Assembly (NCBI GenBank): GCA_958295905.1
Contig: OY282382.1
Location: 3,186,001-3,250,000, forward strand
DNA from: an uncultured Vicinamibacterales bacterium
Lineage (GTDB): Bacteria; Acidobacteriota; Vicinamibacteria; Vicinamibacterales; UBA8438
Direction: 5' to 3'
Length of the DNA stretch: 64,000 nt
Part shown: piece after piece, positions 51,763 to 56,573 of the stretch
Layout of the letters: each line of letters starts with the position of its first letter
Position numbering within the stretch: the first letter of the stretch is position 1
The notes under the pieces: model-generated
What the model was told of the DNA's origin: nothing
Database searches by the model: none
What the model saw: the letters and a program-made list of their open reading frames with translations, nothing else
Program-made: the position numbers and the translations under genes

Positions 51763-51933
51763 CAGGACCACCCCACGCTCCACCACCGCCGTGCGCAGGC
51801 CGAATCGTGGCGGGTCCTGGGGCTCCGGACGGGCGGCGTCGTGGGTCTCACGCGGTGCCGGCGGCGGCAAGACGGTGGCGACCCCTCGAATCGGGAGCAA
51901 GTCGTCACGCGCAGTCAGCGTGGGATGGCCCTG
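51763..51933 (+). mobile_element. MITE-like element, copy D (tandem with E)
   Basis: A copy with ends CAGGACCACCCCACGCT and, inverted, CAGGGCCATCCCACGCT. Flanks are CCCGGTGAG on the left and CCCGGTGCG on the right, a 9-bp duplication with one mismatch. The right flank is also the left flank of copy E. Confidence 0.8.
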
Positions 51934-51942
51934 CCCGGTGCG

Positions 51943-52113
51943 CAGGACCATCCCATGCTCCACCACCGCCGTGCGCAGGCCGAATCGTGGCGGGTCCTGG
52001 GGCTCCGACGGGCGGCGTCGTGGGTCTCACGCGGTGCCGGCGGGTCGGCAAGACGGTGGCGACCCCTCGAATCGGGAGCAAGTCGTCACGCGCAGTCAGC
52101 GTGGGATGCTCCT
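51943..52113 (+). mobile_element. MITE-like element, copy E (tandem with D)
   Basis: The second of two direct copies, almost identical to copy D (shared GGGAGCAAGTCGTCACGCGCAGTCAGCG-type right half). The left flank CCCGGTGCG is shared with D; the right flank CCCGGGTTA has only partial similarity. The pair probably arose by duplication of one inserted copy. Confidence 0.8.
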
Positions 52114-52125
52114 GCCCGGGTTAAG

Positions 52126-52475
52126 GGTGCGTCAAGAAAGTGGTGCGCCGCCGCTGGAAGTAGCCGGCGTGGCCGGTTCCAGGGGCGCCTCTGTTACGCC
52201 GCCGGGTACAGCCCGGAAATCGCTGACCTGACCGTGCCAGGGGCAGTCATTTCACAAGTCTGCCGTGCGTCCGGCCGGGGATCGGCGCGCGGTGCGCGTC
52301 AAGAAAGTGGGGTGCCGCCGCTGGAACTGGTCCCCGATGGATACCAGGCGCCGAAGCCCCAAGAAAAGCCCGTTCGGGGGGGCTCGGTGCCGGGCACGGC
52401 CCGGAATCGCCGATCTGACGATGCCAGGGGCAGTCATTTTCACAAGTCTGCCGTGCGCCCGGCCGGGATCGGCGC
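52126..52475 (+). repeat. Two tandem units of about 160-190 bp
   Basis: Unit 1 (about 52126-52285) and unit 2 (about 52286-52475) both start GCGTCAAGAAAGTGG, share CCGCCGCTGGAA, CAGGGGCAGTCATTT and TCACAAGTCTGCCGTGCG, and end GGATCGGCGCG. The ISKra4-family element is inserted at the end of unit 2 (GATCGGCGC is its target duplication). The repeated CAAGTCTGCCGTGCG resembles the element's own end sequence. Confidence 0.7.
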
Positions 52476-52489
52476 GGGTGCACGTCAGA

Positions 52490-53017
52490 TTTGCTGTGAA
52501 ACGCTCCCATGGCCCGGGCACACGACGGGCGTGACCGCGGATCGATGATCGAGCGGCCTTCAGACCGGAGACGTGAGGTTCCCGGATTTCGTGGGCGGTG
52601 CGGGGCAGCCCCGATCTATGGCCCGACACGGCGCCCCGGGTCCGGGGGCGCCGTGTTCAGGGGCGGGCGGCTGCCTGCAACCGTGTCGCTGTTCATCAGG
52701 TATCCTCCTTGGAGGCGGAAGCGGGAGGGCGCGCCCGGTGCAGGAAACACCCGCCTCAGCGGCGGGGTTCGATTTGCTGCTCGTCCACGGCCCGCCGGGC
52801 CGGGTACGATTCGGGGCTCGATGCCGGGCGCGCGGCGTCAGTTTGTTAACGGGGACGGGATGATTCCCTCCACCGAAAAATGCTGCGACGACTGTTCCGC
52901 TTCCGCCCCTTGAGGATGGCACGATCCGCCGCCGCCGGCTGGAGGTCCAACGGCTCCGCGGACAGAAACCGCCCGCGTTTCATGCGGTCGGGGTGAGGGG
53001 CACGCCCCTCATGAGGG
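52490..53017. mobile_element. IS110-like relic unit 1 (gene almost fully deleted)
   Basis: A 528-bp unit that begins at TTTG and ends before the next TTTG (53018). It is the same as unit 2 except for a 275-bp gap between 52679 and 52680, where unit 2 has the transposase fragment (53208-53482). What is left is the two flanking non-coding parts, about 190 bp and 340 bp. Confidence 0.7.
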
Positions 53018-53820
53018 TTTGCTGTGAAACGCTCCCATGGCCCGGGCACACGACGGGCGTGACCGCGGATCGATGATCGAGCGGCCTTCAGACCGGAGAC
53101 GTGAGGTTCCCGGATTTCGTGGGCGGTGCGGGGCAGCCCCGATCTATGGCCCGACACGGCGCCCCGGGTCCGGGGGCGCCGTGTTCAGGGGCGGGCGGCT
53201 GCCTGCACCTCGTTGATGAATCCGTACTGCCCGAGCATGCGGAGCCAACGCGGTGCGTTGCGCTCGACGAGGAGCCGTCGGTAGTCGATGCCGGGGTCGG
53301 TGTAGGGCCGGGTCCGCAGACCGTCCGGCAGCGCGCTGAACTCCCGCACGGCGGTACGGGCCGGCCCGCCGCCGGCCTCGCAGAGGCGCACCGCGGCGGT
53401 GACGTGCATCTTGTGCACATCGAGTCCGGCCGCCCGCGGGTGCGCCACGTGCATGTCGTCGATGCGCAACATGTCGGCATCAACCGTGTCGCTGTTCATC
53501 AGGTATCCTCCTTGGAGGCGGAAGCGGGAGGGCGCGCCCGGTGCAGGAAACACCCGCCTCAGCGGCGGGGTTCGATTTGCTGCTCGTCCACGGCCCGCCG
53601 GGCCGGGTACGATTCGGGGCTCGATGCCGGGCGCGCGGCGTCAGTTTGTTAACGGGGACGGGATGATTCCCTCCACCGAAAAATGCTGCGACGACTGTTC
53701 CGCTTCCGCCCCTTGAGGATGGCACGATCCGCCGCCGCCGGCTGGAGGTCCAACGGCTCCGCGGACAGAAACCGCCCGCGTTTCATGCGGTCGGGGTGAG
53801 GGGCACGCCCCTCATGAGGG
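53018..53820. mobile_element. IS110-like relic unit 2
   Basis: An 803-bp direct repeat of unit 1 with an additional 275 bp. Its left, middle and right junctions each show TTTG (52490, 53018, 53821), so each unit is TTTG plus body. A short shared core at each junction is what site-specific IS110-type insertion would leave. The non-coding part to the right of the start codon (53500-53820) is well conserved between units and rich in hairpins. Confidence 0.65.
53185..53499 (-). pseudogene. Internally deleted IS110-family transposase
   Basis: About 104 codons from the ATG at 53499. AAGLDVHKMHVTAAVRLCEA is the N-terminal catalytic (DEDD-type) start of IS110 transposases. It then jumps to DYRRLLVERNAPRWLRMLGQ, which looks like the C-terminal part, so some 250 codons are missing. 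A ribosome site (AAGGAGGAT on the - strand) precedes the start. It is not functional as a recombinase. Confidence 0.7.
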
Positions 53821-53917
53821 TTTGTTGGTTAGGGAATGTCGTTGGGGATGTAGAGCAAGGCGTGATCGGCCGATGCTATCAGTATGGAGGCTGTTTTGAG
53901 CCTGGAGGAGCCCGATC

Positions 53918-55653
53918 ATGTCCGATGCGCAGATTGCCGCCCTGGAGCGGCGCCACGCCCACCTTCGGAGTCAGTTGGCCGCGGTCGGCGAAATGCGTTC
54001 GGGGACGCTGACGGAGCGGTGCCGCCGCTGCGGCAGGGCATCCTGTGGTTGCGCCGACCGGGGCGCCTCGGGACGCGGCCCGGTCCTGTCGCTGACGCGC
54101 AAGCAGGACGGCAAGACGGTGACGCGGCTGATTCCGGCGGAAGCGGGCGCGGAAGTCCAGGCGCAGAACGCGGAGTACCGGCGCTTCCGGGAGTTGTCGA
54201 AAGCGTTGATCGAGGTCAGCGATGCGCTGAGTGAAGCCCGGCTGGCGGCCGGGCGCCCGCGCCCCGCCGCTCCGCCGCCGCCCCCCGCCGCGGCGGAAAA
54301 AAAGGGGGCCCGGCGGAAGCGTTCGCGGCCGGGATCAACCTCAAGATTGCAACCGGGATCGCCGAACTCGTCGGACCGGGGGCGTCCGGGCAGGACTTCG
54401 AGGCCTTCGAACAAGCCGTCCGCCGCGGGGTGCTCGACGCCGCCGCGGGGGAGGTAGAGCACCAACTGAACGCGGACGTCACCGACTCCTGCGGCCCGAC
54501 GGTGGTGTGCGCCTGCGGACAGACGGCGCGCTACGCCGGCCGCCGCCCGAAAACGTTCGGCACCGTACTGGGGCCGGTGACGCTGGAACGCGCCTACTAC
54601 TACTGCGCCGCCTGCCGCGCGGGCGTGTGCCCGCGGGACCAAGCGTTGGGCCTGCACGGCACCGCGCTGTCCCCCGCCCTCACGCGGATGGTGGGACTGG
54701 TGGCGGCGGATGGGAGCTTCGCCGACGCGAGCGGGTTGTTGAGCGATTTGACCGGGATGCGCATCGGGGCCAAGCAGGTCGAGCGTACCGCCGAAGCGCT
54801 GGGATGCGCGGTCGCGGCCGACGAACGCGGGGTGGTCGAACCCGCCCCCGCCGCGGCGCCGACGATGTACCTCGGGTTGGACGGCACCGGGGTGCCGGTG
54901 CGCAAGTCCGAGACGGCCGGGCGGCGCGGCAAGCAGCCCGACGGTTCGGCCAAGACCCGCGAGGTCAAGCTGGTCACGGTGTGGACGGCGGAAACGCGCG
55001 ACGGGAACGGCCTGCCCGTCCGGGACCGCGGTTCGGTCAGCTACAGCGCTGCGGTCGAGAGCGCGGCCGGCCGCGACGCCGACCCGCAGCCGTCCCCGTT
55101 CGCGCAACGGGCGTACCGCGAAGCACGGCGGCGCGGCTTCGACACCGCGTCGCGCCGCGTCGTCATCGGCGACGGGGCCGAGTGGATCTGGAATCTGTCC
55201 GTCGAACAGTTCCCCGGCGCCATCGAAATCGTCGACCTCTACCACGCCAAGGGGCATCTGTGCGACGTGGCCAAGGCCGTCTACGGCGCCGGCACGGACC
55301 TCGCCGCCCGGTGGGGCAAGGACCGGCGGGACGAGTTGGACGCGGGGCGGATCGGGGCGGTCCTGACCGCCCTGCGCCCCCACCGCCAGACCTGCGATGA
55401 AGCCCGCAAGTGTATCGACTACCTGACCCGCAACCGCCACCGGATGCGCTATGCGGAGTTCCGCGCGTGGGGTCTTTGCGTGTCGTCGGGCGTCGTCGAG
55501 GCCGGATGCAAGCACGCCATCGGCGCCCGGCTCAAGCGTGCCGGCATGCACTGGACGGTGGCCGGCGCCAACGCCATCATCGCCCTGCGGTGCTGCAAGC
55601 TCAGCGGCCGCTTCGAGGATTTCTGGGAACGACGAGCCGCAAAGGCCGCTTGA
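53918..55653 (+). CDS. ISKra4-family transposase, made by -1 frameshifting
   Basis: The first frame starts at 53918 (MSDAQIAALERRHAHLRSQL, then CRRCGRASCGC) and the second continues to 55653. The frames meet at A_AAA_AAG (54298-54304), a slippery heptamer that lets the ribosome move back one base from EKKG to GGPAEAFAAGINLK. The large part carries ARYAGRRPKTFGTVLGPVTL, YYCAACRAGVCPRDQALGL, LGLDGTGVPVRKSE (first Asp), VVIGDGAEWIWNL (second Asp) and SGVVEAGCKHAIGARLKRAG (Glu), a full DDE set. The second frame alone could start at 54430 but lacks the N-terminus. It looks complete and able to act. Confidence 0.88.
54298..54304 (+). other. Slippery site for -1 ribosomal frameshifting
   Basis: A_AAA_AAG in the frame of the upstream open frame (codons GAA AAA AAG). 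A -1 shift here enters the frame of the main transposase part. This is the classical signal used by many insertion sequences. Confidence 0.75.
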
Positions 55654-55815
55654 GGGGCATCTCACAAATCTGACGTGCACCCGATCGGCGCGCGGTGGTT
55701 GCGCCCGGTCCGTACCGTGGGCGATCATGCTGGTGCGCCGCGGGTCTTCCGGACGGCGGGGCCTGCCTTCGGGGCGGGCGGCGGACGGGGCGCTTCGCGG
55801 AGGAGGGTTCGCGCA

Positions 55816-56399: not shown

Positions 56400-56573
56400 C
56401 AAGACCATCCCGCGCTCCGCCACCGCCGTGGGCAGGCGGAATCGTGGCGGGTCCTGGGGCTCCGGATGTGCGGAATCGTGGGTCCCGCGCGGCGCCGGCC
56501 GGTCGGCAAGACGGTGGCGACCCCTCGAATCGGGGGCGAGCCGTCACGCGCAGTCAGCGTGGGATGCCCCTGC
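56400..56573 (+). mobile_element. MITE-like element, copy F
   Basis: Ends CAAGACCATCCCGCGCT and, inverted, CAGGGGCATCCCACGCT, flanked by TTGCCGCCC on both sides (56391-56399 and 56575-56583), with two extra bases between the right end and the right repeat. Confidence 0.78.

What the first reader, a model, noticed from the sequence alone, without database searches (positions are those of the whole stretch)
52476..53824. Tandem IS110-like relics inside the end of an ISKra4 element, with conserved non-coding parts
Two direct units (528 and 803 bp) sit just inside the 18-bp left end of the ISKra4-family element, each junction marked by TTTG. Unit 2 keeps a gutted IS110-family gene (GLDVHK start joined to a C-terminal part); unit 1 has lost nearly all of it. 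The flanking non-coding parts are preserved far better than the gene. In IS110 elements such non-coding ends can encode the bridge RNA that selects the target. Here the target seems to be the inverted end of another element. The units may be gene-less passengers moved by a recombinase supplied elsewhere.
Basis: partly seen in the sequence, partly recalled or inferred. Interest (0 to 1): 0.8.

Follow-up and report, generated by a model that had tools for sequence, protein, structure and literature searches.

The report
Gene-less IS110 elements keeping bridge RNA
Two jumping-gene fragments in an acidobacterial-type genome have lost their enzyme gene but kept the RNA that tells that enzyme where to insert, and that RNA matches the end of the other mobile element they sit in; intact copies of the parent elsewhere in the genome could still move them.

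Summary
Units of 528 and 803 bp sit in tandem just inside the left end of an ISKra4-family element with a perfect 9-bp target duplication. Both are internal-deletion derivatives of an IS110-family element, "A". Two full-length copies of A with an intact 426-aa recombinase lie elsewhere in the genome; the 803-bp form recurs at three loci. The minus strand encodes a bridge RNA. It is conserved in relatives, has compensatory stem changes, and its guides match the flanking DNA: left guide versus left target 0/100,000 permutations in 12 elements, and 1/20,000 in 8 more distant ones. Unlike IS621, the right guide precedes the left guide, the order reported for IS1111, although this RNA lies upstream of the gene. 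A second IS110, "B", carries a guide matching A's right end and sits there three times. The units are therefore gene-less, bridge-RNA-bearing IS110 derivatives, possible satellites of A. That the 803-bp form moved in trans is likely but unproven, because ISKra4 could have carried it. The 528-bp unit shares two private bases with its neighbour, so it is probably a local product. No experiment shows activity.

The parts
52467..52475 (.). 9-bp target duplication of the ISKra4-family element, left (GATCGGCGC)
   Evidence: sequence; identical copy at 55683-55691
52476..52493 (+). left inverted repeat of the ISKra4-family element, rebuilt across the insertion because unit 1 begins with TTTG
   Evidence: 18 of 18 match to 55665-55682; empty copies read CAGA-TTTG-TTGG
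52490..53017 (-). unit 1 (A528): right end plus left end of IS110 element A; gene removed almost exactly (about 7 codons left at each end)
53018..53820 (-). unit 2 (A803): element A with an internal deletion, 4 copies at 3 loci in the genome
53185..53499 (-). remnant of the IS110 recombinase gene (104 codons from ATG): N-terminus with first D (GLDVHK) fused in frame to the C-terminus; lacks the E, D, D and Ser region
53500..53820 (-). left end (LE) of A803: non-coding, upstream of the gene, contains the bridge RNA
   Evidence: folds with z = -5.0; homologues aligned
53569..53697 (-). bridge-RNA core of unit 2 (covariance model hit, E 3.5e-24; unit 2 is one of the sequences the model was built from)
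52766..52894 (-). bridge-RNA core of unit 1 (covariance model hit, E 3.5e-24)
53679..53686 (-). right target guide (5' side of target loop), GCAUUUUU; pairs only AAAT of the right target AAATCTGACG
53645..53652 (-). left target guide (3' side of target loop), UUAACAAA; matches AACAAA of the ISKra4 end (6 nt here, 7 nt in the TTAGGG variant at other loci)
53576..53584 (-). left donor guide AGCAGCAAA; matches the right end of A (CACAGC-AA)
53548..53555 (-). putative right donor guide GGGUGUUU, pairs discontiguously with the left end AA-ACCC
   Evidence: inspection; weaker than the other three guides
53018..53184 (-). right end (RE) non-coding part of A803, ends GCGTTTCACAGC-AA; its GCGTTTCA is an 8-bp subterminal inverted repeat of LE TGAAACGC
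   Evidence: no significant fold for the 190-bp right part (z = -1.0)
53821..55682 (+). body of the ISKra4-family element: DUF6788 ORF (53918-54457) and UPF0236-like transposase ORF (54430-55653)
55683..55691 (.). 9-bp target duplication, right

Best explanation
The two units are gene-less derivatives of an IS110-family element (A). A makes a bridge RNA upstream of its recombinase gene. One loop of this RNA recognises the target (right guide first, then left guide), and the other recognises the element's own joined ends. The derivatives keep this RNA and both ends but no working recombinase, so the recombinase of a full-length copy would have to act in trans. The guides direct A into the terminal inverted repeat of a resident ISKra4-family element at a core inside TTTG/CAAA. 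Because TTTG is present at both junctions, the host repeat is rebuilt and the ISKra4 element is probably not harmed. Shown here: the anatomy, deletions, full-length partners, bridge RNA with covariation, guide-target matches and exact empty sites. Inferred: expression of the RNA, action in trans, and survival of ISKra4 mobility. The 528-bp unit most likely arose locally from the 803-bp unit by duplication and a second deletion.
For: Full-length A with the same ends at C1:2012740-2014508 and 884845-886616, ORF intact, no stops. Recombinase is IS110 family (NF033542, E 1.7e-75; Pfam DEDD_Tnp_IS110 and Transposase_20; IS621 structure 8wt6, E 4e-11). A803 has one identical deletion at the window, 106-kb and 886/887-kb loci. 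LE folds with z -5.0; relatives align; 9 of 33 consensus pairs have two-sided changes. Left guide versus left target: 0/100,000 permutations (12 elements); 1/20,000 in 8 distant IS110s chosen by a fixed rule. Right guide versus right target: 528/100,000. Left donor guide 23/24 bases. The opposite (IS621) order is at chance. Eight bridge-RNA loci in this genome, five in units without a recombinase gene. Published precedent that mini-IS with ends move when recombinase and RNA are supplied in trans: PMC11187229; bridge RNA supplied in trans: PMC11208160.
Against: No transcript, circle or transposition was observed. All A803 copies lie in ISKra4 left ends, and the window and 106-kb copies have their own ISKra4 target duplications, so ISKra4 transposition with A803 aboard could explain the spread. 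The right guide pairs only 4 nt (AAAT) with the ISKra4 target, and the left guide only 6 nt at the window site. The right-guide test rests mainly on two elements (L082, L127). The right donor guide is weak. L083 (near set) and L128 (distant set) do not fit. No gene-less copies were found outside this genome. No consensus promoter in the region, although a sigma-70 consensus may not apply in this phylum.
Confidence: 0.72

Rival explanations
1. Passive cargo: A803 arose once inside one ISKra4 copy and has since been copied only by ISKra4 transposition and homologous recombination; the recombinase of A played no part after the deletion.
For: Every A803 lies in an ISKra4 left end; the window and 106-kb copies have separate ISKra4 target duplications GATCGGCGC and GGGTTCTCG; window and 106-kb ISKra4 bodies share 8 alleles in their right part; the inverted repeat stays intact after insertion.
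Against: Next to the insertion the window ISKra4 is of the uninserted lineage (TTTGTTGGTTAGGG...TTGGGGATG) while the 106-kb and 886-kb ones carry a different sequence (TTTGTTAGGG...TTGAGGGGGTG), about 7 differences in 30 bp; one transposition history with no later exchange does not give this.
Confidence: 0.33
2. Dead relics: the units are decaying IS110 remains with no RNA made and no movement possible; their intactness only reflects youth.
For: No promoter consensus; gene-less forms seen only in this genome; the 528-bp unit is a local product.
Against: Both ends, the guide segments and the RNA scaffold are intact in all five gene-less copies, and two intact recombinase genes are present.
Confidence: 0.2
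3. The tandem arrangement was made by bridge-RNA-guided insertion of one unit at the end of the other.
For: Exact RE-core-LE junction CACAGC-AA-ACCC in the window and at 886 kb; the left donor guide matches CAGC-AA.
Against: A's own left target guide (TTAAC-AA) does not match the end CACAGC-AA; the two window units share private alleles 660G and 752T, so duplication by homologous recombination with a circle, or unequal crossing-over, explains the tandem more simply.
Confidence: 0.25
4. Assembly artefact: the tandem repeats are a mis-assembly.
For: Near-identical repeats in tandem in what may be a metagenome-derived genome.
Against: 6.1-Mb contig, so long reads are likely; the same 803-bp form occurs in three contexts with unique flanks; unit 1 and unit 2 have different internal structures.
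Confidence: 0.04

Closest known systems
IS621 / IS110-group elements with bridge RNA (PMC11208160, PMC11208158)
   Same: DEDD recombinase of the IS110 family; bridge RNA in the non-coding left end upstream of the gene; separate target and donor guide segments; dinucleotide core; left donor guide before right donor guide.
   Different: Target loop order reversed (right guide 5', left guide 3'); RNA of about 195 nt with outer stem; a subterminal inverted repeat of 6-8 bp placed about 33 nt inside the left core; core AA.
IS1111-group elements with seekRNA (PMC11187229)
   Same: Top-strand match precedes bottom-strand match; subterminal inverted repeats; [quoted passage not shown]
   Different: RNA is upstream, not downstream, of the gene; the subterminal repeats are shorter and not 7 and 3 bp from the ends.
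Artificial mini-IS mobilised in trans (PMC11187229, Fig. 5)
   Same: IS ends with no recombinase gene; recombinase supplied separately.
   Different: Those were built in the laboratory, given cargo, and the RNA came from another plasmid; the units here are natural and carry their own bridge RNA.
MITEs and other non-autonomous IS derivatives (review PMC10969869)
   Same: Internal-deletion derivatives dependent on a parent's transposase.
   Different: MITEs are defined by terminal inverted repeats and target duplications, which these lack; the review's text has no mention of IS110.

Membership tests
IS110 family (parent element A) | DEDD recombinase with N-terminal RuvC-like and C-terminal Transposase_20 domain | tested here: met
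   NCBIfam NF033542 above cut-off, Pfam PF01548 and PF02371 above cut-off; alignment to IS621 covers the E and D-D region
IS110 family (parent element A) | No target duplication beyond a short shared core; exact empty sites | tested here: met
   ISKra4 empty copies versus window insertion, shared TTTG only
IS110 group: bridge RNA | Structured RNA from the long left end, upstream of the gene | tested here: met
   about 320-nt LE versus 167-nt RE; z -5.0 versus -1.0; conserved scaffold. Transcription not tested
IS110 group: bridge RNA | Target loop with left guide on the 5' side and right guide on the 3' side | tested here: not met
   order reversed: 3' side versus left target 0/100,000; 5' side versus left target 47,610/100,000
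IS110 group: bridge RNA | Donor loop matching the element's own ends | tested here: met
   left donor guide 23/24 bases in 6 elements (permutation 1694/100,000); right donor guide only by inspection
IS1111 group | Non-coding RNA region downstream of the gene | tested here: not met
   the upstream LE carries the RNA
IS1111 group | Subterminal inverted repeats of about 11-13 bp, 7 and 3 bp from the ends | tested here: not met
   6-8 bp GAAAC/GTTTC repeat, about 33 nt and 3-4 nt from the core
Non-autonomous (satellite) element | Lost transposase, kept cis sequences, several copies with the same deletion, autonomous partner in the same genome | tested here: met
   A803. A528 is a single copy, so the copy-number criterion is not met for it
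Non-autonomous (satellite) element | Moved by the partner's enzyme | not testable with these tools
   needs an in vivo assay; ISKra4 hitchhiking not excluded
MITE | Terminal inverted repeats and target-site duplication | tested here: not met
   unit ends are not inverted repeats
ISKra4 family (host element) | UPF0236/DUF6788-type transposase, inverted repeats, target duplication | tested here: inconclusive

The most novel reading that the evidence does not exclude
A natural satellite system on bridge RNAs: gene-less IS110 elements that carry their own guide RNA and borrow a recombinase, living in a chain of RNA-guided parasites (A guided into ISKra4 ends, B guided into A's right end). Single-base guide changes (left guide TTCACAAA versus TTAACAAA) would shift the preferred site between the two ends of the host element. 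They belong to an IS110 clade whose left-end bridge RNA uses the IS1111 guide order.
Probability: 0.4. Interest if true: 0.8.

Novelty: new variant of a known kind. Interest (0 to 1): 0.64.

Why it matters
Bridge RNAs are under study as programmable recombination tools. A natural gene-less element that keeps its own bridge RNA would show that RNA and recombinase can separate in nature, as they do in laboratory mini-IS. The 528-bp unit is a natural near-minimum of ends plus RNA that can be tested. A clade with the RNA upstream of the gene but the guides in IS1111 order bears on how the two IS110 groups are related and on how guides must be designed. The nested guides (A to ISKra4, B to A) make RNA-guided parasitism between insertion sequences directly testable.

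Tried and rejected
Rfam found nothing in the region. The right end (53018-53207) as RNA source: fold not better than shuffles, rejected. IS621-type guide order: tested and at chance, rejected. Full-length A at 2012740 beside an IS4-like end as a second natural target: not used as evidence, because only 5 nt of left target (ACAAA) remain and the IS4-like element probably inserted there later. L083 and L128: their left guides do not fit the flank; kept as negatives. L121 was read at a wrong motif by the fixed rule and left in as a failure. Enrichment of substitutions in guides among the seven copies: 2 of 7 variable sites, P = 0.055, not claimed. Search for gene-less copies in 28 family and 396 phylum genomes: none outside this genome. 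Literature searches for IS110 with MITE, non-autonomous or miniature found no IS110-derived satellite in the open library; subscription papers and ISfinder could not be searched. Structure prediction was not run, since family membership was already clear.

Full report
What is there. Window 52490-53017 and 53018-53820 are two direct units of 528 and 803 bp. They share 190 bp at one end and 340 bp at the other at 100% identity; unit 1 equals unit 2 minus 275 bp. They lie inside an ISKra4-family element (DUF6788 and UPF0236-like ORFs) with 18-bp inverted repeats and a perfect 9-bp duplication GATCGGCGC. Ten copies of the same element elsewhere in this genome carry no insertion and read CAGA-TTTG-TTGG, so the insertion is exact with TTTG as the shared stretch. 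The window is C1:3186001-3250000 of a 6.3-Mb, 3-contig genome. The nearest named relatives of the element are in Acidobacteria MAGs, so the phylum is an inference.

The parent. Searching the genome with unit 2 gave two full-length elements, about 1.77 kb, at C1:2012740-2014508 and 884845-886616. Both have an intact ORF (426 aa from the ATG behind AAGGAGG) on the strand that corresponds to the window's minus strand. It is an IS110-family recombinase by NCBIfam, Pfam and similarity to IS621. The 803-bp form has one internal deletion, flanked in the parent by the direct repeat GCGATGACC, and is found four times at three loci. The remnant ORF keeps the first catalytic D but lacks the E, D, D and Ser segments.

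Copies and history. Seven copies were aligned. The two window units share private alleles (660G, 752T), so unit 1 is most simply a local duplicate of unit 2 that suffered a second deletion. The 803-bp copies sit in ISKra4 copies at separate sites (duplications GATCGGCGC in the window and GGGTTCTCG at 106 kb). Beside the insertion the window ISKra4 has the sequence of the uninserted lineage, whereas the 106-kb and 886-kb copies carry a variant with about 7 differences in 30 bp. This favours at least two insertions of the 803-bp form. But the right parts of the window and 106-kb ISKra4 bodies share alleles, so recombination or hitchhiking on ISKra4 stays open.

The RNA. The left end of about 320 nt, read on the window's minus strand, folds far better than shuffles (z = -5.0); the right end does not. 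Nine sequences (A and eight relatives with recombinases from about 55% identity upward) share a scaffold. The consensus fold has an outer stem that closes just before the ribosome-binding site, a target loop and a donor segment; 9 of 33 pairs show changes on both sides. A covariance model finds eight such RNAs in this genome, five of them in units without a recombinase gene, and one in each of five related genomes, each next to a gene. Most of those sequences were used to build the model, so the E-values are not independent evidence. None appeared in a sample of 396 genomes of the phylum outside this one, searched with stricter filters.

The guides. The 3' side of the target loop has the same sequence as the left flank of each element: TAACAAAC for A at the TTAGGG-type ISKra4 end, and in others TTTCCAAAC, GCAAAAGC, GCAAAAAAC, ATCCAAAC, GTGCCCAA and TACACGAAC. 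The summed longest match is 100 against a permutation mean of 52.7; 0 of 100,000 permutations reach it. The 5' side is antisense to the right flank (CAAGTAATT, 9 nt, and AGTGGTGG, 8 nt, in two relatives; only AAAT in A), 528 of 100,000. The order known for IS621 gives chance values in the same test. The windows in that test were picked by hand around the core, so a fixed rule was applied to more distant IS110s (recombinase about 35-40% identical). It gave 61 against 40.4, with 1 of 20,000 permutations reaching it; two of these eight (L123, L127) were also in the first set. The donor segment carries AGCAGCAAA, matching the right end CACAGC-AA, and CGGC where relatives end in CGGC (small sample). 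The right donor guide is weak and by eye.

How it probably works. By analogy with bridge-RNA recombination (PMC11208160, PMC11187229), the recombinase of a full-length A, with RNA from any copy, would join the ends of a unit and insert it at the ISKra4 end. Because TTTG is present at both junctions, the ISKra4 repeat is rebuilt. In laboratory constructs, ends without a gene move when enzyme and RNA are supplied in trans. None of this has been tested for A.

Relation to known groups. Published IS110-group RNAs lie upstream of the gene with left guide then right guide; IS1111 RNAs lie downstream with the order reversed. A and its relatives combine the upstream position with the reversed target-loop order, and have a 6-8 bp subterminal repeat (GAAAC/GTTTC, or GAAAG/CTTTC in B). 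I did not see this combination described. However, figures and supplements of those papers were not readable, and one of their six drawn examples may belong to this clade. Non-autonomous derivatives of IS110 were not found in the open library.

A chain of parasites. A second IS110 element, B (recombinase 44% identical to A), adjoins A's right end at three loci, and at two of them it lies between the ISKra4 repeat and A. Its left guide GCACAGCAAC matches A's right end CACAGC-AA over 8 nt, or 11 nt with the first bases of B. B thus appears to be aimed at A's end; the three loci may not be three separate insertions.

Verdict. The step from intact RNA and ends to actual movement in trans is inference.

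Noticed in passing
window 53918-55653 (slip site near 54297): The ISKra4-family transposase is split into two overlapping frames at a run of seven A (GGCGGAAAAAAAGGGGG) in all 12 further copies checked, suggesting programmed frameshifting rather than a mutation.
   Followed up: partly
L070 (C1:886617-888294): A803 plus the first 72 bp of ISKra4 is duplicated in tandem; the odd junction joins A's right end to an internal TTTTG of ISKra4 (GGCTGT-TTTG), as if recombined at a core without a matching guide.
   Followed up: partly
L069, L070, L071: IS110 element B sits at A's right end three times and its left target guide (CACAGCAA) matches that end.
   Followed up: partly
genome-wide: About 38 sites carry CACAAATCTGACGTGC, more than the ISKra4 right ends account for, so other elements with the same terminus exist. 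The guide variant TTCACAAA of one full-length A would fit these ends better.
   Followed up: no
L012 (C1:5395012-5395126) and L077 (C1:4781792-4781950): Shorter A-like remnants: L012 keeps the left end with part of the target loop (guide GTTTCCAAA, flank GTTTCCAGA); L077 looks like B-type and A-type ends fused within about 130 bp.
   Followed up: no
window 51763-52119 and 56400-56499: A GC-rich repeat of about 100 bp (CAGGACCA..CCACCACCGCCGTG) recurs on both sides of the ISKra4 insertion; nature not examined.
   Followed up: no
L071 (C1:2014513 on): An IS4-like element with end CACTAGTG abuts full-length A, leaving only ACAAA of the left target; it has 11 or more copies in the genome.
   Followed up: partly
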